DNA of 45,128 nucleotides from positions 1-45,128 of the forward strand of contig JAUSCK010000206.1 of the NCBI GenBank assembly GCA_030651035.1, given 5' to 3'. Positions 1 to 44,584 of this stretch are shown here, in pieces. Numbering within the stretch: position 1 is the stretch's first letter; the number at the start of each line of letters is the position of its first letter. Position numbers and translations under genes: made by a program. The notes under the pieces are model-generated. The model was not told where the DNA came from and searched no databases. It worked only from the letters and a program-made list of their open reading frames with translations. This DNA comes from Elusimicrobiota bacterium. GTDB taxonomy: Bacteria; Elusimicrobiota; Elusimicrobia; Elusimicrobiales; UBA9959.

Positions 1-16
1 ATGATAGGGGCGGTGG

Positions 17-214
17 TCAGGACTTCATACTTCTAAGCCTGCCCGTGACACCCTCGGCATGCTCCGAGACGGCCCTCGGCTTGGTCCGAGATACCCCTCG
101 CCATGCTCCGAGATGCCCCTCGGCTTGGTCCGAAAAACGCACTTCCTCCATAACTTCCTCGTTTCCGCGGAGAATTTCTATAATGACATCGGAATCAAGA
201 AGTATGTCATGCAT
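17..214 (-). pseudogene. truncated VapC-like PIN-domain toxin
   Basis: The first 25 or so residues read like the start of a VapC ribonuclease: a beta strand, then LLDSDVIIEIL, where the first aspartate is the usual first metal ligand of PIN domains, followed by an acidic helix. After residue 25 the reading frame enters the 22-bp tandem repeat at 51-138 and the translation becomes arginine-rich and repetitive, ending at 65 residues; VapC proteins usually have about 130. The remaining acidic catalytic residues are absent, so ribonuclease activity is unlikely. The start codon overlaps the end of the antitoxin gene by 8 nt, the normal vapBC arrangement. It is called broken by inference. The other possibility, a short expressed fragment, cannot be excluded. 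Confidence 0.7.
51..138. repeat. 4 x 22-bp tandem repeat interrupting vapC
   Basis: Four consecutive 22-bp units lie at 51-72, 73-94, 95-116 and 117-138. Each begins CCCTCG and carries a small inverted repeat (CTCGG ... CCGAG). Units 1 and 3 share CATGCTCCGAG, and units 2 and 4 share CTTGGTCCGA, so a 44-bp pair may have been duplicated. No spacers separate the units. The array begins exactly where VapC similarity stops. Confidence 0.85.
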
Positions 215-485
215 GCGGCTTCCTCCTTAACCGCAGTAACCGCCCCATCCGCGTTCCTTTACGCAGCGCCCGCACATAAGCCGCTGTGTCCCCTATGTCC
301 TTGCGGTCTTTCCATATACCGAACGCCGCCCTCATTCCGGCCCCAAAATTTGACGGCCCTGGACGCAGGTATTTCCGGTCAAGCGCGGACCGTATCAGAT
401 CCGACATGGACTGATGCGTGCGGAAACTCAGGGCGTGCAGGGTTTCCCACTGTTCCGTTGAAAGGTAGATCTGTGTTCGTCTCAT
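207..485 (-). CDS. VapB-like ribbon-helix-helix antitoxin
   Basis: This is a 92-residue protein. Its N-terminus (RTQIYLSTEQWETLHALS, then SMSDLIRSALDRKYL) has the pattern of a ribbon-helix-helix DNA-binding domain: a short beta strand, two helices and the S-x-S-x-x-IR segment. The C-terminal half is basic and would normally wrap and inhibit a PIN toxin. Its stop codon overlaps the start of the VapC remnant. It probably represses its own promoter, since a perfect 17-bp palindrome covers the -10 box just upstream. With the toxin broken, it may survive only as an orphan regulator. Family assignment rests on the fold pattern plus the neighbour; the exact subfamily is not resolved. Confidence 0.75.
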   Translation of the reverse strand: MRRTQIYLSTEQWETLHALSFRTHQSMSDLIRSALDRKYLRPGPSNFGAGMRAAFGIWKDRKDIGDTAAYVRALRKGTRMGRLLRLRRKPHA

Positions 486-521
486 GATGTATAGTATACA
501 TCACTATTGCACTATAGTCAA
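486..521 (-). promoter_or_regulatory. vapB promoter with palindromic operator
   Basis: On the minus strand, TTGACT (521-516), a 17-nt spacer and TATACT (498-493) form a near-consensus sigma-70-type promoter. The -10 box ends 7 nt before the vapB ATG, so transcription should start at or within a base of the start codon, giving a leaderless message. A perfect palindrome (GATGTATA, one base, TATACATC) at 486-502 covers the -10 and the predicted start site. This is the expected place for autorepression by a ribbon-helix-helix antitoxin. Confidence 0.8.
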
Positions 522-538
522 GGGCAGGGATTGCGGCC

Positions 539-1087
539 CTAAATTATCTCCCGCAGGAGTTCCTGGCGGGGCTGGGGGATTACTACTTTTTCTACGAGGA
601 GGCCTTTTTTGCCGGCTACGGCGGCGCCGGCGGCCACGGCGGTTTCCACGGCGGCTACGGAGCCGGTCATGGTGACGAAAGCTTTGCCGCCCAGGGCCAT
701 AGCCAGGCGGATTTCGAGGAGCTTTACGTTGCCGGCTTTTACAGCGGCATCGGCGGCTTCTATCAGGGCTGCGACCGAGAAAGCTTCTATAATGCCCAGG
801 GCCTCAAGTCCGTCCACCACAGTGATGCCTTCGATGGCCGGGAAAACCTCGGGATGGATGTTCGGGATAACAAAGCTGTCCACCAGGGAGTGCGCCGCCT
901 TTGCGGAGCCGGCTTCAACGGCGGCGTTAACATCGCCCACATCGCCCGCTATCAGCGCGATGTACTTACCGGCACAGATCGAACGCGAAAGTATCAATTT
1001 GATATTCGAGGTTTTCAGCATGGCGTCGGCCGCTTCCATGCCCTTGGCCACACTGGAAAGTTCAACACCGCCAATAGCGTTTAGCAT
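539..1087 (-). CDS. pduT: PduT-like trimeric microcompartment shell protein
   Basis: This 182-residue protein has two fused BMC domains (about 1-90 and 95-182), the architecture of trimeric BMC-T shell proteins. Similarity to PduT runs end to end: AIGGVELSSVAKGMEAADAML at the start, a SFVIPNIHPEVFPAI linker, then GIIEAFSVAALIEAADAA opening the second domain. Cys38 in SICAGK matches the PduT cysteine known to bind a 4Fe-4S cluster at the trimer pore. That cluster is thought to pass electrons across the shell to or from PduS, whose homologue lies 9 bp upstream. It is the last gene of a minus-strand set. No hexameric shell gene, vertex protein or signature enzyme is visible, so the rest of any compartment would be encoded elsewhere. 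Confidence 0.92.
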   Translation of the reverse strand: MLNAIGGVELSSVAKGMEAADAMLKTSNIKLILSRSICAGKYIALIAGDVGDVNAAVEAGSAKAAHSLVDSFVIPNIHPEVFPAIEGITVVDGLEALGIIEAFSVAALIEAADAAVKAGNVKLLEIRLAMALGGKAFVTMTGSVAAVETAVAAGAAVAGKKGLLVEKVVIPQPRQELLREII

Positions 1088-1096
1088 AATAAAACC

Positions 1097-2440
1097 TTAA
1101 GCGATTATCTCCACGTATTTTTCGTTGACCTTGCCGACGGTGCCGGCAATGCTCGCGTGCACCGGGCAGCCCAGCTTACCGGCGGGGATGTCCCCCACCA
1201 CCGCGCCTTTCTCCACTTTCTGCCCCTGCTTCACGGACGGGACGCAGGGAGCGCCAATATGCTGGCTCATTAAAATTTTAACACGGGAAGGTTTATAGTT
1301 GATGTCGGTCCAGGGGGCGTCTTTATTGTAATCCTCAAGCCCCAACCGCTTCACCAGTTTCGACACCGGCACCTTTCTATAATCGCGCACAGGGTGGACC
1401 TGTGGCGCGCGCCCTGTGTTCAGGGGCGAATTCATAAAGCCTATCTTAAGTTCGCGCAGGTCGGATTTGGCGGCAATGCAGGCCTCGCGCGGGTTAAGGC
1501 CCTCGGGGCAGGAATAGAGACTGCAGAGCGAACATTCGCAGCAGAGCAGGCCGTACTGGCTGTGCAGCTTATGTTCCGGCCCCCCGGAGAAAAGCATAGT
1601 GCGCATCACGCGGTGCGGCTGCACGTTGTGCCCCAGCAGGTAGCGCGGGCAAAACTCGGTGCAGAAGGAGCACTGGTCGCAGGCTGAGCGCCCGATGCGC
1701 GAGAACACGGCGCGGCTCTGCGCCTTCTTAACTATCAGCGGGTGATTTTTGGGAAGGACTATAATGCCGGCCGAAGCCTTCACCACCGGAAGGTCAAAAT
1801 CCGTCATCACCTTGCCCATCATGGGCCCGCCGTCGATGTAAGCGGGATCTTTGATGGTAAAGCCGCCGCACAGTTCCACAGCCTCGCGCCAGGTTATCCC
1901 TACGGGAACCCTGAAGGTGGCCGGCTTTTTCACGGCGCCGTTTACAGTTATGAATTTTTCGGTGACCGGTCGGCCGGGGAAGGCCGCGTTGTAGAGTGTT
2001 TCCACATTACTGACCACGCAGCCAACTTCGAGCGGTATGCCGCCGGGAGGCACTATGCGGCCGGTAGCCTCGAAGACCAGGCACTGCTCGTCGCCCGCGG
2101 GGTAATAGTCACCCATCTTCAGGACCGAGATATTTTTCCGGCCTTTGGCGAGCTCCTCCAGGCGGGGGATAATCTTCTCGTGCTTTTTCTTGATACCTAT
2201 TATGCCCTGCTTCGCGCACACGGCCTTCATCATCATTTCGAGCCCGTCAAAAACCCTGGCGGGAAAATATTCCAGGATCTTCTGGTCCTTCTTCAGGAGG
2301 GGTTCGCACTCGGCCGCGTTCGCCAGCGCGTACTCAGCCCGCCCCTGCGCTTTCACGTAGGCGGGAAAGCCCGCGCCGCCGGCTCCTACTACTCCGGCGC
2401 TGCGCAGGTTTCGGCTGAATTCGGCTGAAAAGTCGGACAT
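1097..2440 (-). CDS. pduS: PduS/RnfC-like flavin and iron-sulfur oxidoreductase
   Basis: This 447-residue protein belongs to the RnfC/PduS family. It opens with a GVVGAGGAGFP nucleotide-binding loop, followed by the Complex I 51-kDa-like and SLBB-type regions. Two 4Fe-4S motifs follow: Cys254, 257, 260, 264 and Cys300, 303, 306, 311. A barrel-sandwich-like C-terminus (KVEKGAVVGDIPAGKLG) ends the protein. In Pdu compartments PduS is an NADH-dependent cobalamin reductase that partners PduT. In other compartments the same family supplies redox balance. The pduT neighbour 9 bp downstream and the absence of rnfABDEG favour the microcompartment role over a membrane Rnf pump. The substrate here is unknown; cobalamin reduction is not shown by the sequence. 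Confidence 0.9.
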   Translation of the reverse strand: MSDFSAEFSRNLRSAGVVGAGGAGFPAYVKAQGRAEYALANAAECEPLLKKDQKILEYFPARVFDGLEMMMKAVCAKQGIIGIKKKHEKIIPRLEELAKGRKNISVLKMGDYYPAGDEQCLVFEATGRIVPPGGIPLEVGCVVSNVETLYNAAFPGRPVTEKFITVNGAVKKPATFRVPVGITWREAVELCGGFTIKDPAYIDGGPMMGKVMTDFDLPVVKASAGIIVLPKNHPLIVKKAQSRAVFSRIGRSACDQCSFCTEFCPRYLLGHNVQPHRVMRTMLFSGGPEHKLHSQYGLLCCECSLCSLYSCPEGLNPREACIAAKSDLRELKIGFMNSPLNTGRAPQVHPVRDYRKVPVSKLVKRLGLEDYNKDAPWTDINYKPSRVKILMSQHIGAPCVPSVKQGQKVEKGAVVGDIPAGKLGCPVHASIAGTVGKVNEKYVEIIA

Positions 2441-2455
2441 TAATGGCTTAAAAAA

Positions 2456-3685
2456 CTATTTGGCCGCGACCATACGCTTTTTGACAGCGGTGGCGAGGCG
2501 CTTTATCCCTTCGTCGATATCTTCGGGGGTGGGATAGGAGAAGTTCAGGCGCATGGTGTTCTTGCCGGAGCCGTCGCAATGGAAAGCGGAGCCTATCACG
2601 TAGGCCACGTTCTCTTTAAGGGCGTCGGCGAACATCTCGTCCGCGCTCATCCCTTCGGGCAGGCGCACCCACAGAAAAAGGCCGCCCTCCGGCCTGGTCC
2701 AGGTGACGCCTTCCGGCATGTATTTCTCAAGGGCGGCCACCATGGTCTCTTTCTTCAGCTTGTAGGTCTTTTTGACCACCTCGATATGCTTCTCGAAGTA
2801 GCCTGTGCGCAGGAAGTCCGCCGCGATAAGCTGGTTGAGGCTGGAGGTGCAGAGGTCGAGCGACTGCTTCAGGATCTCCATCTTCCTGATGATCTGGGGG
2901 TGGGCGAGGATGACGCCGAGGCGCAGGCCGGGCGCGAAGGTCTTGGAGAAGGTGAACAGCGAGATTATATTATTGGTCTTGCGGGTTTTCTGGTCGAGGC
3001 GGTAAAGCATGTCGGGCGCCGTGCCTTCAAAGCGTATCTGGCGATAGGGGGAGTCCTCTATTATTGCCACATCGTATTTTTCAGAAAGCTCTATCACCTT
3101 TTTACGCTTCTCCTGGGAGAGCGTTACGCCGCTGGGGTTCTGGAAGTCGGGCACCAGGTAGACGAATTTGTAATGCTCGTCCTGGCTCCTGAGCCAGACG
3201 AGTTTCTCTTCCAGTTCCTCGGTGCAGATGCCGTCGTCCTCCATCTTTACGCCGACGAAGTCCGCCCCATAGGATTTGAACACCTGCAGGCCGCCCATAT
3301 AGCTGGGCATCTCCACCAGCACGGGGTCTGAAGCGTCTATGAACAGCCGGCCCACCATGTCCAGCGCCTGCTGGGAGGCGGTGGTGACAATAAGGTTTTC
3401 GGGCTTGGCGGTTATGCCTTCGTGTTTTTCCAGGAACTTGATGAATTCCTCTTTCAGTTCGGGCAAGCCGTCGGTGGGCCCGTACTGCAGGGCCACTTTC
3501 CCCTTTTTGGCCATTATTTCCTTCACGGATTCAGCGACGAAATCGTACGGAAAATGCTCGGGGTCCGGGAGGCCGCCCGCGAAGGAGATCACTCCGGGTT
3601 TATTGGTTATCTTAAGGAGTTCACGGATAACGGAAGCTTTTGTGCGCCGGGGGGCGGTGGCAAGATTCTTTGTGATGTCTATCAT
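2456..3685 (-). CDS. PLP-dependent class I/II aminotransferase
   Basis: This 409-residue fold-type I aminotransferase resembles the 2-aminoadipate/aromatic (LysN-like, MocR-C-terminal) group. Visible marks are ISFAGGLPDPEHFP, LQYGPTDGLPELKEEF, the substrate and cofactor segment LVPDFQNPSG, and the PLP-binding lysine in FTFSKTFAPGLRLG. There is no N-terminal DNA-binding domain, so it is an enzyme rather than a MocR regulator. It likely moves an amino group between an amino acid and 2-oxoglutarate in the cytosol; the donor is unknown. A good Shine-Dalgarno (GGAGGA) precedes the ATG. It is the first gene of the set with pduS (15 bp downstream) and pduT, so co-transcription is likely, but whether it feeds the microcompartment proteins is inference. 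Confidence 0.88.
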   Translation of the reverse strand: MIDITKNLATAPRRTKASVIRELLKITNKPGVISFAGGLPDPEHFPYDFVAESVKEIMAKKGKVALQYGPTDGLPELKEEFIKFLEKHEGITAKPENLIVTTASQQALDMVGRLFIDASDPVLVEMPSYMGGLQVFKSYGADFVGVKMEDDGICTEELEEKLVWLRSQDEHYKFVYLVPDFQNPSGVTLSQEKRKKVIELSEKYDVAIIEDSPYRQIRFEGTAPDMLYRLDQKTRKTNNIISLFTFSKTFAPGLRLGVILAHPQIIRKMEILKQSLDLCTSSLNQLIAADFLRTGYFEKHIEVVKKTYKLKKETMVAALEKYMPEGVTWTRPEGGLFLWVRLPEGMSADEMFADALKENVAYVIGSAFHCDGSGKNTMRLNFSYPTPEDIDEGIKRLATAVKKRMVAAK

Positions 3686-3773: not shown

Positions 3774-5051
3774 TCATTCATCGCCCGGGGCGGCTTTGAC
3801 CGATGCTGCAAAATAATCCAGGTTTTCCTTATAGTAATCTTTCCTGGCCGGGTCGGTTTCAGCCGCGTGTTTTTTGGCGTAATAGGCCATGGCCTTCGGA
3901 TAGGCGGAGCCTTTCAGCTCCAGCAGGTCTTCCGGGAAAGGGCGCCCTGTGACGGCGCACGCCTTCTCAAGCGACTTTAAATGCTGGCTCAGCACCTCTA
4001 TGCCCATTTTTTTTGAGGCGTCACGGATAAAGGAGGCCGCCTCAAGTATGACCAGCGCGCCGCTTGTTTTCAGCGAATTAAGCACGGCGGGGTCGAGCTC
4101 ATATTTGGCGGCGTTGACGTCGGCCACGGCCAGGCAGTCCAGTGCCAGCGGGTAATTTTTTTCCGCCAGCGCCATGCCGCCGACGAAAAGCAGCGCGTCC
4201 GCGCTGAAAGGCGGCCAGCGGGCTTCGAAGAATTCCTCGAGGAACCCGGCGTACTCGGCTTTTTCCTTCTGCAGCCTGGCCAGCGAGACGCCGGTCTTCG
4301 CGTAATTCCCGGAGTCTCCGGCGGCATAGGCGAATATTTTAGAGTCTGCCTCCCGGTTCTTCTGTATGGTCTCGGCCTTCTCAAGGCTGAGGTAGCCGCC
4401 CAGCTGCTCCTCGTAATACTTGCGTATCTTCTCTTTGTAGCGGTCCATGTCCAGCGAAAGAGTGAAATAGCTGGCGAAAATGGTGTCCGTGTAGAGGTCG
4501 GTATATGCGCCGCGGATATAACTCCTGAGCAGGGCCGGGTCGGCTTTCATGCGCTCGTGCACATAGATATCCTCGGTAAGGTAGGCCTCGTATTCAAATT
4601 CAAGCGGGTTGGCCCCGGCGTCCTGGCGGTACTCCGGGTAGAGGTAGCACTGCACGGCGTGCACCAGTTCGTGCAGGTAGATGGGGTTGGTGTACTTCAC
4701 CAGCTCCGCACGCACTTCTTTATTGCCCCACAGCACTTCCACCACCTGGGAGTCCTTAAAGCCTTTGGCCGCGAACAGTTTCAGGATGAACCTGGAATTG
4801 AAATAGACCGCGTTCTTTACGGGGTCGAACCAGGCGAAGCAGGGGGAGGGGTCGCGCCGGATGAGCACGCGCAGGCCGGAATAGCCTTTTGCCTTTTCAA
4901 GCCTGCCGTAGAGCTCCCTGCCCGCCGGGACGGCGCGGAGCTGCGCCTCGAACTCCTTTTTCAATTTGGCGCTCAGCCGCGCGTCGTACTGGTAAGCCCC
5001 GGCAAAAGCCGGGAGCAGGAGTACGGCAAAAAAAACGATCAGCCGCTTCAT
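3774..5051 (-). CDS. secreted protein with HExxH metallopeptidase motif
   Basis: This is a 425-residue protein with a clear signal peptide (MKRLIVFFAVLLLPAFAGA, cleavage near residue 19). HELVH at 127-131 is a zinc-binding HExxH motif, and a Glu-rich helix about 20 residues later (EFEYEAYLTED) could supply the third ligand, as in gluzincins. The downstream part is helical and charged, with TPR-like alternation of Ala and Tyr. I do not recognise the family. A periplasmic or surface metallopeptidase is the simplest reading, but the motif may be structural only. The gene stands alone on the minus strand with its own promoter, TATAAT 6 nt before the ATG and no Shine-Dalgarno sequence. Confidence 0.6.
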   Translation of the reverse strand: MKRLIVFFAVLLLPAFAGAYQYDARLSAKLKKEFEAQLRAVPAGRELYGRLEKAKGYSGLRVLIRRDPSPCFAWFDPVKNAVYFNSRFILKLFAAKGFKDSQVVEVLWGNKEVRAELVKYTNPIYLHELVHAVQCYLYPEYRQDAGANPLEFEYEAYLTEDIYVHERMKADPALLRSYIRGAYTDLYTDTIFASYFTLSLDMDRYKEKIRKYYEEQLGGYLSLEKAETIQKNREADSKIFAYAAGDSGNYAKTGVSLARLQKEKAEYAGFLEEFFEARWPPFSADALLFVGGMALAEKNYPLALDCLAVADVNAAKYELDPAVLNSLKTSGALVILEAASFIRDASKKMGIEVLSQHLKSLEKACAVTGRPFPEDLLELKGSAYPKAMAYYAKKHAAETDPARKDYYKENLDYFAASVKAAPGDE

Positions 5052-7946: not shown

Positions 7947-9833
7947 ATGACCGGAACAACTATAAACACTGGCCAGGACCTTTACAAGACCCTGGACAAG
8001 GGCTTTGTGAAACTGGTGGAATTCATGGGAGGAGACCAGCGCGCCGTTGACTCGGCCCGCGTCTCCTTCGGCTCCGTCTCGAAGGGCGAAGAGCAAGACA
8101 AGAAGCTGGTGGAATACCTGCTGGCCAACGGCCACCTCAGCCCCTTCGAACATTCGGTGTTCCAGTTCCACGTAAAATGCCCCATCTTCGTGGCCAGGCA
8201 GTGGATGAGGCACCGCATCGCCTGCGTTACCGGGGAAACAAGACTTTGCTTCGATCTGCCGGCTGGACCGCGCGACGGCCGCTATAGAGCCTACCCGATG
8301 ACGGTAAGCGATTTTTACAGAAAATGGAACGAAGGCGCGAAACCCATACCGCATTCCCGCAAGCCTTCCATGCTCATGAAAATGCCGCAGCGCGAACGCC
8401 TTAAGCGGATGATGCTGAGAAACCTTGATGAAAACACCTGGACGATCAAACACACGGCGGTGGTCGACATATTCCGCACCGGTGAGAAACCTGTTTTTGA
8501 GGTGACACTGGAAGACGGTAAAAAAATACGCTGCACACAGGAGCACCGTTTCCTTTTTGAGGACGGCTGGAAAACGCTAAAAGAGGCAACCGGCCTGTCA
8601 ACTACAGGGAAGAAGACAACCTTCACAAGCGGTTTTCCCAGACTTGCCGTGAACGGGCGCGTTGTGGATAAGCCCCTGTATCGCGACAAAGAGTGGCTCA
8701 GGGAACAATACAACCGCCCGGAGGCCAGCGACAGTTCCTTAGCGGAAATGCTCGGTGTCTCCGGAGTCGTGATCCGCAAATGGCGCAGAATACACGGCCT
8801 TACCGGACTTAAGCCCGGCGGCTTCAGCAAAGGCCTTGCTCCGTGGAATAAAGGAAAAACCTACAGCTTATGGGACGGAACGCGTACGCTCAGCGCGGAG
8901 CATCTTGCGGCTTTAAGGTCCGCGCGCTGCGGCCCCAACTCCAACTTCTGGCGCGGCGGCGTATCCACCCCGCGCGCGACCATAGCACGCTGGACCACGG
9001 AAAACGCGCGAAAAATATTCGCCGCCGGCGGATACCGCTGCGCCGCATGCGGCGCAGCAGGCGGCCGGCTGCACGCCCACCATATAATTCCGGTGTGGGC
9101 GGATGACAGCAAGGCTTGCGACTTAAAAAACCTTACCACACTTTGCGCCGCGTGCCACCGCAACATTCACCGCACCAACTCCGAACTGGAGTTTGCGGGA
9201 AAAATGGCGGAGAAACAGGCTGTCGCACCGTACGCCAAAGTCGTCAAACCCAAAGCTCCGGTACGCAATCTTGTGCCGCACTGGGTGAGGATCTCCTCAA
9301 TAAAACATATCGGGGTCCAGGAAACCTATGACCTTACTGTTGCGGGTCCCTTCCACAATTACGTGGCGAACGGCATTGTGACTCATAATTCTTATAATGA
9401 AATCTCGGCCCGCTACACAGAGGTGAAGGACGAGTTCTACTACCCCGAGGCCTTCAGGGTGCAGGACAAGATAAACCGCCAAGGCTCGGTGCGCTCTGGC
9501 GCGCTTGAACAGGAAAAGATGCTGGCCGTTTATGACAAGGCGATAAAGGCCTCCTACGCCGCCTACAGCGAACTGCTGGAGGCCGGCGCCGCCAGGGAGA
9601 TGGCGCGCATGGTGCTTCCCGTGGCCCAGTATACGCAGTTCCACTGGACCATAAACGCCCGCAGCCTGCTGAACTTCATAGGCCTGCGCGCCGACGCCCA
9701 CGCCCAATACGAGATACGCCGGTACGCGGACGTCATAACGGAGATCTTCCGCGCTAAAATGCCCTGGACCTGGGAAGCCTGGTCAAAGCTTAAAGCTCTG
9801 CCAAAGGCGGCCAATGAAAATAAAACTGCTTAA
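7947..9833 (+). CDS. thyX: flavin-dependent thymidylate synthase with intein
   Basis: ThyX makes dTMP from dUMP using methylene-tetrahydrofolate, FAD and NADPH. The 628-residue precursor contains a 389-residue intein at residues 93-481. The spliced product would be 239 residues, a normal ThyX length. The N-terminal extein carries SFEHSVF-like FEHSVFQF and ends in ARQWMRHRIA. The C-terminal extein resumes with SYNEISARYTEV. Joining them restores the ThyX signature RHRx7S (RHRIASYNEIS), which binds dUMP/FAD, so the intein sits inside the active-site motif and the enzyme needs splicing to work. No thyA is in the window. GGAGGG precedes the ATG. The 3' end overlaps the next gene by 20 nt. Confidence 0.95.
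   Translation: MTGTTINTGQDLYKTLDKGFVKLVEFMGGDQRAVDSARVSFGSVSKGEEQDKKLVEYLLANGHLSPFEHSVFQFHVKCPIFVARQWMRHRIACVTGETRLCFDLPAGPRDGRYRAYPMTVSDFYRKWNEGAKPIPHSRKPSMLMKMPQRERLKRMMLRNLDENTWTIKHTAVVDIFRTGEKPVFEVTLEDGKKIRCTQEHRFLFEDGWKTLKEATGLSTTGKKTTFTSGFPRLAVNGRVVDKPLYRDKEWLREQYNRPEASDSSLAEMLGVSGVVIRKWRRIHGLTGLKPGGFSKGLAPWNKGKTYSLWDGTRTLSAEHLAALRSARCGPNSNFWRGGVSTPRATIARWTTENARKIFAAGGYRCAACGAAGGRLHAHHIIPVWADDSKACDLKNLTTLCAACHRNIHRTNSELEFAGKMAEKQAVAPYAKVVKPKAPVRNLVPHWVRISSIKHIGVQETYDLTVAGPFHNYVANGIVTHNSYNEISARYTEVKDEFYYPEAFRVQDKINRQGSVRSGALEQEKMLAVYDKAIKASYAAYSELLEAGAAREMARMVLPVAQYTQFHWTINARSLLNFIGLRADAHAQYEIRRYADVITEIFRAKMPWTWEAWSKLKALPKAANENKTA
8223..9389 (+). other. ThyX intein with HNH homing endonuclease
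   Basis: Splicing blocks are all visible. Block A begins at Cys1 (CVTGETRLCFDLPAG). Block B contains CTQEHRFLFEDGW with its conserved His. The end is TYDLTVAGPFHNYVANG followed by VTHN, where His-Asn precede Ser+1 of the extein. Between them lie a helix-turn-helix-like stretch (SSLAEMLGVSGVVIRKW), a NUMOD3-like APWNKGKT segment, and an HNH nuclease: Cys365/Cys368, HAHHIIP at 376-382, Asn395, Cys400/Cys403 and His404/408. The endonuclease looks complete. HNH enzymes with NUMOD-type DNA-binding modules are typical of phage and intron homing, so this is probably an active or recently active mobile intein. Confidence 0.93.
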
Positions 9834-17925: not shown

Positions 17926-17956
17926 TTTATGAACTATCAGCCGCATGAGAGATTGA

Positions 17957-18025
17957 ACATGGATAAACAGGATGGACAGGATTTGTATTTCCCTCTCTTA
18001 TCCTGTTTATCCTGTTCATCGATGT
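17957..18025. repeat. ACATGGAT/ACAGGAT palindromic repeat, copy 1
   Basis: The left arm (17957-17982) starts ACATGGATAAACAGGATGG; the right arm (18000-18025) is its imperfect inverted copy. The AT-rich loop is 17 nt. It lies between lptE and holA. Four related copies occur in this window. Confidence 0.9.
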
Positions 18026-22301: not shown

Positions 22302-22367
22302 ACATGGATAGACAGGATGTACAGGATTTTTTTCCTCTTATATCCTGTTTATCCTGTTCATCCATGT
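22302..22367. repeat. ACATGGAT/ACAGGAT palindromic repeat, copy 2
   Basis: The left arm starts ACATGGATAGACAGGATGT and the right arm ends CATCCATGT at 22367. It lies between uvrC and the alkyltransferase gene. Confidence 0.9.
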
Positions 22368-22406
22368 GAATTATATTTTGTGACAAAGAAACAGGTTTTA
22401 TTGGTG

Positions 22407-27030: not shown

Positions 27031-27091
27031 ACAAAGAGGTGATCAGCTATAAAGCTACGACGACTGACTTATATATTACAAAATATCATTC

Positions 27092-27161
27092 ACATGGATG
27101 AGCAGGATGGACAGGATGAAACAAGGCAAACACAAATCCTGTCTATCCTGTCTATCCATGT
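27092..27161. repeat. ACATGGAT/ACAGGAT palindromic repeat, copy 4
   Basis: The arms are ACATGGATGAGCAGGATGG and the inverted counterpart ending TATCCATGT at 27161. It lies between the GYF-like gene and pilB on the minus strand. Confidence 0.9.
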
Positions 27162-27212
27162 TTGAATTATGCGGGCGGCCGGCGGCCGGTTATTATCCTG
27201 TATTGCCGGCCG

Positions 27213-33010: not shown

Positions 33011-33033
33011 AAAAAAATAGTCAGAGAAAAGCA

Positions 33034-33132
33034 TTCACCGCAGAGGCGCAGAGAGCGCAGAGTGGAGTCAAAGCGACACGTTTTCCTGCCTCGGGAATTC
33101 CCCCTCTGCGTCCTCCGCGTCTCTGCGGTGAA
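33034..33132. repeat. TTCACCGCAGAG inverted repeat, copy 1
   Basis: The left arm (33034-33062) begins TTCACCGCAGAGGCGCAGAG. The right arm (33104-33132) is its imperfect inverted copy ending CTGCGGTGAA. It lies between nadK and recN. A second copy is at 44436-44566. Confidence 0.88.
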
Positions 33133-33152
33133 AAACAGGAAATTCCCCTGTC

Positions 33153-37687: not shown

Positions 37688-37701
37688 AAAAAAGAACATT
37701 C

Positions 37702-37770
37702 ACATCGATAAACAGGATGGACAGGATAAGAGGAAAAAATAAAAATCCTGTATATCCTGTCTATCCATGT
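37702..37770. repeat. ACATGGAT/ACAGGAT palindromic repeat, copy 5
   Basis: The left arm starts ACATCGATAAACAGGATGG and the right arm ends TATCCATGT at 37770. It lies just upstream of purH, in the gap after ligA. Confidence 0.9.
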
Positions 37771-37813
37771 TAAATCTTTATTCGGCGCACCGTATCATAA
37801 ATTACTGCAACAC

Positions 37814-44363: not shown

Positions 44364-44435
44364 ATATTACCTCAATCGAGTCTTTTCCTAAACAAACACG
44401 AGCAAATCAAAACGATTTAAGAGAACTTCCCGATA

Positions 44436-44566
44436 TTCACCGCTGAGGCGCAGAGGTCGCAGAGCACAGAGTGAGCAGAACGGCAAAATACGAATTAATA
44501 TTTATTCCTCCGAATACTGCGGTGTCGCTTCGCTCCACTCTGCGACCTCTGCGCCTCTGCGGTGAA
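44436..44566. repeat. TTCACCGCAGAG inverted repeat, copy 2
   Basis: The left arm begins TTCACCGCTGAGGCGCAGAG and the right arm ends CTCTGCGGTGAA at 44566. It lies between the sorting-domain gene and the PorV-like gene, in the same family as 33034-33132. Confidence 0.88.
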
Positions 44567-44584
44567 ATTCTTAACGCTGCTGCC

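What the first reader, a model, noticed from the sequence alone, without database searches (positions are those of the whole stretch)
539..3685. Minimal microcompartment electron-transfer module: aminotransferase, PduS, PduT
The PduT-like shell protein keeps the iron-sulfur Cys38 and sits 9 bp from a PduS-like protein with both 4Fe-4S motifs. Yet no hexameric shell gene, vertex protein, aldehyde dehydrogenase, alcohol dehydrogenase, phosphotransacylase or signature enzyme is nearby. An aminotransferase leads the set instead. This could be a satellite of a compartment encoded elsewhere, a shell-free electron-transfer pair, or a compartment with an amino-acid-derived substrate. It is the best candidate here for an undescribed system.
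Basis: partly seen in the sequence, partly recalled or inferred. Interest (0 to 1): 0.7.

Follow-up and report, generated by a model that had tools for sequence, protein, structure and literature searches.

The report
Electron-export genes of known-type bacterial microcompartment
The two shell electron-transfer genes look isolated only because the assembled piece of DNA ends there; in this genome and its relatives they are the front end of a complete, already described type of bacterial organelle that breaks down deoxyribose phosphate from DNA, and the neighbouring aminotransferase is an ordinary housekeeping gene.

Summary
The three genes are real: an aminotransferase (AT), a PduS-like flavo-iron-sulfur protein and a PduT-like shell protein with pore Cys38. 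The "missing compartment" is a contig-end artefact. The window is one whole contig that stops 538 bp beyond pduT. Contig C60 of the same genome carries TIM, PduL, two BMC-H, three BMC-P, acylating AldDH, BMC-T, RpiB and DeoC, with no alcohol dehydrogenase. A vapC toxin gene is split between the two contig ends; in a congeneric genome it lies unbroken between pduT and TIM. In 24 of 29 congeners pduST and BMC-H share a contig; the other five break at contig ends. The locus fits the known SPU (sugar-phosphate-utilising) microcompartment, for which PduS and TIM are already reported in Atribacteria. PduS/PduT most likely re-oxidise luminal NADH from AldDH through the shell, replacing the missing alcohol dehydrogenase (inferred). 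The AT is not the signature enzyme: it is single-copy in relatives without shells and unlinked to pduST in the sister family. A shell-free pair is not supported: 50 of 50 relatives and 31 of 31 distant genomes also encode shell proteins. True pduST satellites occur in other phyla. Some relatives lack shell, pduST, AldDH and RpiB but keep AT-TIM-DeoC.

The parts
539..1087 (-). PduT-like single BMC-T shell protein with pore Cys38 (predicted [4Fe-4S] ligand)
   Evidence: PF00936 x2; PduT structures as nearest solved relatives; Cys at position 38 in the adjacent-to-pduS PduT relatives aligned, whereas the C60 BMC-T has Ser there
1097..2440 (-). PduS-like RnfC/NuoF-family flavoprotein with two [4Fe-4S] motifs
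   Evidence: PF01512, PF10531, PF13534, PF13375; Cys motif positions 254-264 and 300-311
2456..3685 (-). PLP aminotransferase of the LysN / multi-substrate type; adjacent by conserved synteny, probably not part of the compartment
   Evidence: PF00155; best solved relatives 1x0m, 3aov, 1wst, 2egy; single copy in BMC-less relatives
207..485 (-). ribbon-helix-helix (VapB-like) antitoxin inserted downstream of pduT
   Evidence: PF01402; same gene at the same place in L070
141..214 (-). 5' part of a vapC (PIN-toxin-like) gene; its 3' part starts at C60 base ~141
   Evidence: rc window maps to L070 2611-3168 and C60 141-716 maps to L070 3162-3742
1..140 (.). repeat-rich sequence interrupting vapC at the contig end; similar repeat at the start of C60
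   Evidence: 75.9% match C145 61-141 / C60 63-141; other copies in the genome at C317 and C146

Best explanation
pduS-pduT is the 5' part of a single SPU-type microcompartment locus whose order is AT - pduS - pduT - [toxin-antitoxin insert] - TIM - pduL - BMC-H - BMC-P - AldDH - BMC-T - rpiB - BMC-P - BMC-P - deoC - BMC-H - orf93. It is split across two contigs because a repeat element sits in an inserted vapC gene. [quoted passage not shown] Acylating AldDH turns acetaldehyde into acetyl-CoA and NADH, and PduL makes acetyl-phosphate, which a cytosolic acetate kinase uses for ATP. TIM handles the triose phosphate outside. The locus has no alcohol dehydrogenase, so PduS on the luminal face re-oxidises NADH through flavin and two [4Fe-4S] clusters and passes electrons to the [4Fe-4S] cluster in the PduT pore, which exports them to a cytosolic acceptor. 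The AT is a housekeeping transaminase at the border of the locus.
For: Shown here. C60 carries the rest of the locus. Both contig ends map to adjoining bases of one congeneric contig (L070 ...3168 / 3162...), which itself reads AT-pduS-pduT-RHH-vapC-AbrB-TIM-pduL. The full order is contiguous in, for example, G019, G023, G028, G010 and G005. 24 of 29 congeners have pduS and BMC-H on one contig, and the other five break at contig ends. DeoC, TIM, PduL and AldDH models pass NCBIfam cut-offs. DeoC, AldDH and PduL carry N-terminal encapsulation-peptide-like extensions. No ADH gene is in the C60 BMC cluster. Acetate kinase is present in the genome. Cys38 is kept in PduT, while the main-locus BMC-T has Ser. 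Relatives that lack the shell also lack pduS, pduT, AldDH and rpiB, and their DeoC/PduL lack the extension. Literature: PduS oxidises NADH, has FMN plus two [4Fe-4S], and binds PduT (PMC2982820); SPU definition (PMC8217296, PMC4207490).
Against: The contig join is inferred from a relative, not from reads of this genome; at least ~280 bp of repeat and possibly a longer element lie unassembled or unplaced between the contigs. The direction of electron flow and the cytosolic acceptor are untested. For Atribacteria the opposite carbon flux (acetaldehyde condensation as an NADH sink) has been proposed (PMC6281690). One Fe-type alcohol dehydrogenase exists elsewhere in the genome and could serve the compartment.
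Confidence: 0.7

Rival explanations
1. True satellite: pduST sits at a distant chromosomal site in this genome and serves the C60 compartment in trans.
For: Real satellites of this pair exist: in Elusimicrobia G101 and G102, the sister-family genomes G093 and G095, and genomes of several other phyla, pduST lies away from the main BMC locus.
Against: The two contig ends meet base to base on L070 and split one vapC gene; the pair is contiguous with the main locus in 24 of 29 congeners, and the other five break at contig ends.
Confidence: 0.05
2. The compartment runs in reverse as an NADH sink: AldDH reduces acetyl-CoA to acetaldehyde, DeoC condenses it with glyceraldehyde-3-phosphate, and PduS/PduT bring electrons in.
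For: Proposed for Atribacteria loci with the same DeoC/RpiB/AldDH/PduS set (PMC6281690, PMC6776118). DeoC and AldDH reactions are reversible (general knowledge).
Against: TIM and PduL are conserved in the locus and acetate kinase is present, which fits catabolism to acetate better. The published PduT cluster potential of +99 mV (PMC2982820) favours outward electron flow. Neither point is decisive.
Confidence: 0.2
3. Compartment with an amino-acid-derived substrate in which the aminotransferase is the signature enzyme.
For: AT is 15 bp from pduS, and the adjacency holds in 46 of 47 f1 relatives with both genes. An RMM2 locus with an aminotransferase is discussed in PMC4207490.
Against: AT is single-copy and conserved in relatives with no BMC (G029, G036, G043, G046, G048 and gut members of the sister family). 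It is unlinked in G093 and G095 and has no encapsulation extension, and DeoC/RpiB already supply the signature chemistry.
Confidence: 0.03
4. Shell-free soluble PduS-PduT electron-transfer pair.
For: None beyond isolation in the window.
Against: All 50 relatives with a PduS orthologue also have BMC domains, and 31 of 31 distant genomes have BMC-H and BMC-P proteins. Shell-less f1 relatives lack pduST too.
Confidence: 0.01

Closest known systems
SPU (sugar-phosphate-utilising) microcompartment, especially the Atribacteria form (Axen 2014, PMC4207490; Sutter 2021, PMC8217296; PMC6776118)
   Same: DeoC plus RpiB signature pair, AldDH, PduL, BMC-H/BMC-P/BMC-T shell, PduS homologue, TIM in or beside the locus, no alcohol dehydrogenase
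   Different: Elusimicrobiota host; pduS-pduT integrated between an aminotransferase and TIM; toxin-antitoxin inserts between pduT and TIM; SPU subtype (1-7) not assigned because the published subtype models were not available here
PduS-PduT of the PDU microcompartment (Citrobacter/Salmonella)
   Same: Domain architecture, both [4Fe-4S] motif spacings, pore Cys38, tandem gene order
   Different: No B12-dependent diol dehydratase in the locus; below the NCBIfam equivalog cut-off for PduT (128.6 against 250.3 bits)
PduS/PduT of glycyl-radical microcompartments (PMC6325248)
   Same: B12-independent compartments carrying the tandem pduS-pduT pair, with a proposed lumen-cytosol electron path
   Different: Different signature enzyme; no glycyl radical enzyme in this locus

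Membership tests
SPU microcompartment | DeoC-type aldolase (pfam01791) in the locus | tested here: met
   C60 8455-9450, PF01791 and TIGR00126 291.9 bits against cut-off 117.3
SPU microcompartment | RpiB-type isomerase (pfam02502) in the locus | tested here: met
   C60 7220-7666, PF02502
[quoted passage not shown]
   two BMC-H and three BMC-P on C60
SPU microcompartment | core acylating AldDH and PTAC | tested here: met
   NF011927 567.5 against 403 bits; NF011652 240.2 against 209 bits
SPU microcompartment | assembles a shell and degrades deoxyribose phosphate | not testable with these tools
   needs cells or purified proteins
SPU subtypes 1-7 | match to published subtype shell-protein models | not tested
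PduT | BMC-T fold with pore cysteine | tested here: met
   (by sequence; no structure solved or predicted here)
PduT | NCBIfam TIGR02526 equivalog cut-off | tested here: not met
   128.6 against 250.3 bits; hence 'PduT-like'
PduS | four-domain architecture and two 4Fe-4S motifs | tested here: met
   spacing as in PMC2982820
PduS | NADH-dependent reductase that binds PduT | not testable with these tools
   biochemistry needed
BMC satellite locus | distal from the main locus | tested here: not met
   contig ends adjoin on L070; synteny in congeners

The most novel reading that the evidence does not exclude
pduS-pduT is a portable, shell-obligate electron-export cassette that many sugar-phosphate compartments across phyla use instead of an internal alcohol dehydrogenase, mostly as a true satellite, and that became fused into the main operon in one Elusimicrobiota family. 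Natural shell-loss lineages drop exactly this cassette with AldDH, RpiB and the shell, and strip the encapsulation extension from DeoC and PduL.
Probability: 0.4. Interest if true: 0.5.

Novelty: new member of a known kind. Interest (0 to 1): 0.3.

Why it matters
It removes a candidate 'undescribed system' and replaces it with a well-supported SPU microcompartment in a phylum (Elusimicrobiota) for which a search of the held papers turned up no clear description of one. The comparative data also give natural experiments on an open question, how compartments without alcohol dehydrogenase recycle NADH: PduS/PduT occur only with a shell in every genome checked and are missing where the shell is missing.

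Tried and rejected
Satellite, shell-free and amino-acid-substrate readings (see rivals). AT as signature enzyme: rejected by its presence in BMC-less relatives. Direct end overlap of C145 and C60: no exact overlap of 11 bp or more; only a 76% repeat. Rfam search of window and C60: no hit. Trees of DeoC, TIM and AT to decide shell loss against ancestral absence in G029: TIM and AT of G029 sit inside its genus, but DeoC groups with shell-less G036 at SH-aLRT 94 on long branches, so loss with possible DeoC replacement is likely but unproven.

Full report
What is in the window. The three genes are present as described, on the minus strand, 9 and 15 bp apart. The shell protein has two BMC domains and Cys38. 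The PduS-like protein has the FMN, SLBB, dicluster and RnfC domains and both tetracysteine motifs. The aminotransferase is a class I/II enzyme closest to the archaeal multi-substrate and Thermus alpha-aminoadipate enzymes. The window is all of contig C145 in a 320-contig assembly; pduT reads towards its first base, 538 bp away.

The rest of the compartment. Contig C60 of the same genome holds, on the plus strand, TIM, PduL, BMC-H, BMC-P, acylating AldDH, BMC-T, RpiB, BMC-P, BMC-P, DeoC, BMC-H and a 93-aa ORF. Its BMC-T has Ser at the Cys38 position. There is no second PduS in the genome. C60 begins with toxin-antitoxin genes.

The two contigs adjoin. The reverse complement of window 141-700 matches L070 (a congeneric contig) at 2611-3168, and C60 141-716 matches L070 3162-3742. 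L070 reads AT-pduS-pduT-RHH-vapC-AbrB-TIM-pduL without a break, so a single vapC gene is cut between the two contigs of our genome. Both contig ends carry 140 bases of related repeat that occurs elsewhere in the genome, a sufficient reason for an assembly break. That this genome has the same order as L070 is inference, but a strong one.

Synteny. In relatives the whole order AT-pduS-pduT-TIM-pduL-BMCH-BMCP-AldDH-BMCT-RpiB-BMCP-BMCP-DeoC-BMCH-orf93 is contiguous. In the genus, 24 of 29 other genomes with PduS have BMC-H on the same contig and five break near contig ends; in the rest of the family it is 12 of 18, again mostly contig ends (counted by hand). G035 is an exception, with at least 4.9 kb free of BMC genes beyond pduT. 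The pduT-TIM interval varies from about 50 bp to about 8 kb and often holds toxin-antitoxin genes.

The aminotransferase. Within the family it lies next to pduS in 46 of 47 genomes (counted by hand); in the exception, G040, it is at the other end of the same locus. It is, however, single-copy in relatives with no BMC at all (G029, G036, G043, G046, G048 and gut genomes of the sister family), and in G093 and G095 it is on a different contig from pduS. It is best read as a bordering housekeeping gene.

Natural shell loss. G029, in the same genus, and G036 and G043 keep AT-TIM-(PduL)-DeoC but have no shell gene, pduS, pduT, AldDH or RpiB at the locus. Their DeoC and PduL lack the N-terminal extension that carries the encapsulation peptide in the compartment versions. 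This separates the genes that go with the shell (pduS, pduT, AldDH, rpiB) from those that do not (AT, TIM, PduL, DeoC). Whether these genomes lost the shell or never had it at this locus is not settled by the trees, though loss is likely for G029.

No shell-free pair. All 50 relatives with a PduS orthologue have BMC domains. Thirty-one genomes from other lineages (Omnitrophota, Planctomycetota, Ignavibacteria, Acidobacteria, Sumerlaeota, Wallbacteria, more distant Elusimicrobia) that carry PduS, nearly all with PduT beside it, all have BMC-H and BMC-P. In many of these the pair has no BMC neighbours within up to 10 kb on either side, so real satellites exist, just not here.

Mechanism and literature. 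The gene set meets the published definition of SPU compartments (DeoC + RpiB + AldDH, proposed to act on DNA breakdown products; PMC8217296, PMC4207490). Atribacteria SPU loci already include PduS and, in one case, TIM. Axen et al. [quoted passage not shown]). Export of electrons from AldDH-derived NADH is therefore the likeliest role. This step is inferred, as is the direction of flux; reverse flux has been proposed for Atribacteria. Acetate kinase (two copies) and one Fe-ADH are elsewhere in the genome. The confidence of 0.7 is for the whole statement; for the narrower claim that pduST belongs to this SPU locus and adjoins C60 I would give about 0.93.

Verdict. Ordinary as a system, with an informative comparative setting. 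New member of a known kind.

Noticed in passing
window 7947-9833 (+): Thymidylate synthase ThyX interrupted by an intein with an HNH endonuclease domain.
   Followed up: no
L142, L143, L145 (G029, G043, G036): Shell-less relatives keep AT-TIM-(PduL)-DeoC but lack shell, pduS, pduT, AldDH and rpiB; their DeoC and PduL lack the N-terminal encapsulation extension.
   Followed up: partly
L007 8455-9450; also L166, L170, L171, L173, L178: The N-terminal linker of the encapsulated DeoC carries a conserved cysteine cluster (ENTCxxxCxxC in the family; varied CxxC-rich forms in other phyla), absent from shell-less DeoC: a possible metal or Fe-S site in an aldolase linker.
   Followed up: partly
L096, L098, L106, L112, L133 and others: True satellite pduS-pduT pairs in many phyla, far from the main BMC locus of the same genome.
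   Followed up: partly
between pduT and TIM (window 1-538; L069, L078, L081): Recurrent toxin-antitoxin and other insertions in the same operon interval, up to about 8 kb.
   Followed up: partly
window ~33033-33133 and 44433-44572; L007 3604-3710 and 8034-8145: Short repeat family, partly palindromic, shared by intergenic regions of both contigs, including inside the BMC operon; no Rfam match.
   Followed up: no
window ~17946-18025, 22302-22371, 27087-27162, 37692-37779; L007 ~4370-4459: About 80-bp repeats, 75-80% identical, in both orientations; one copy lies between pduL and BMC-H.
   Followed up: no
L154 ~1819 (G095): The main-locus BMC-T of G095 has a Cys at the PduT Cys38 position although the genome also has a separate PduT.
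   Followed up: no
window 3774-5051 (-): Conserved 425-aa protein upstream of AT with an HExxH metallopeptidase-like motif and no Pfam or NCBIfam match.
   Followed up: no
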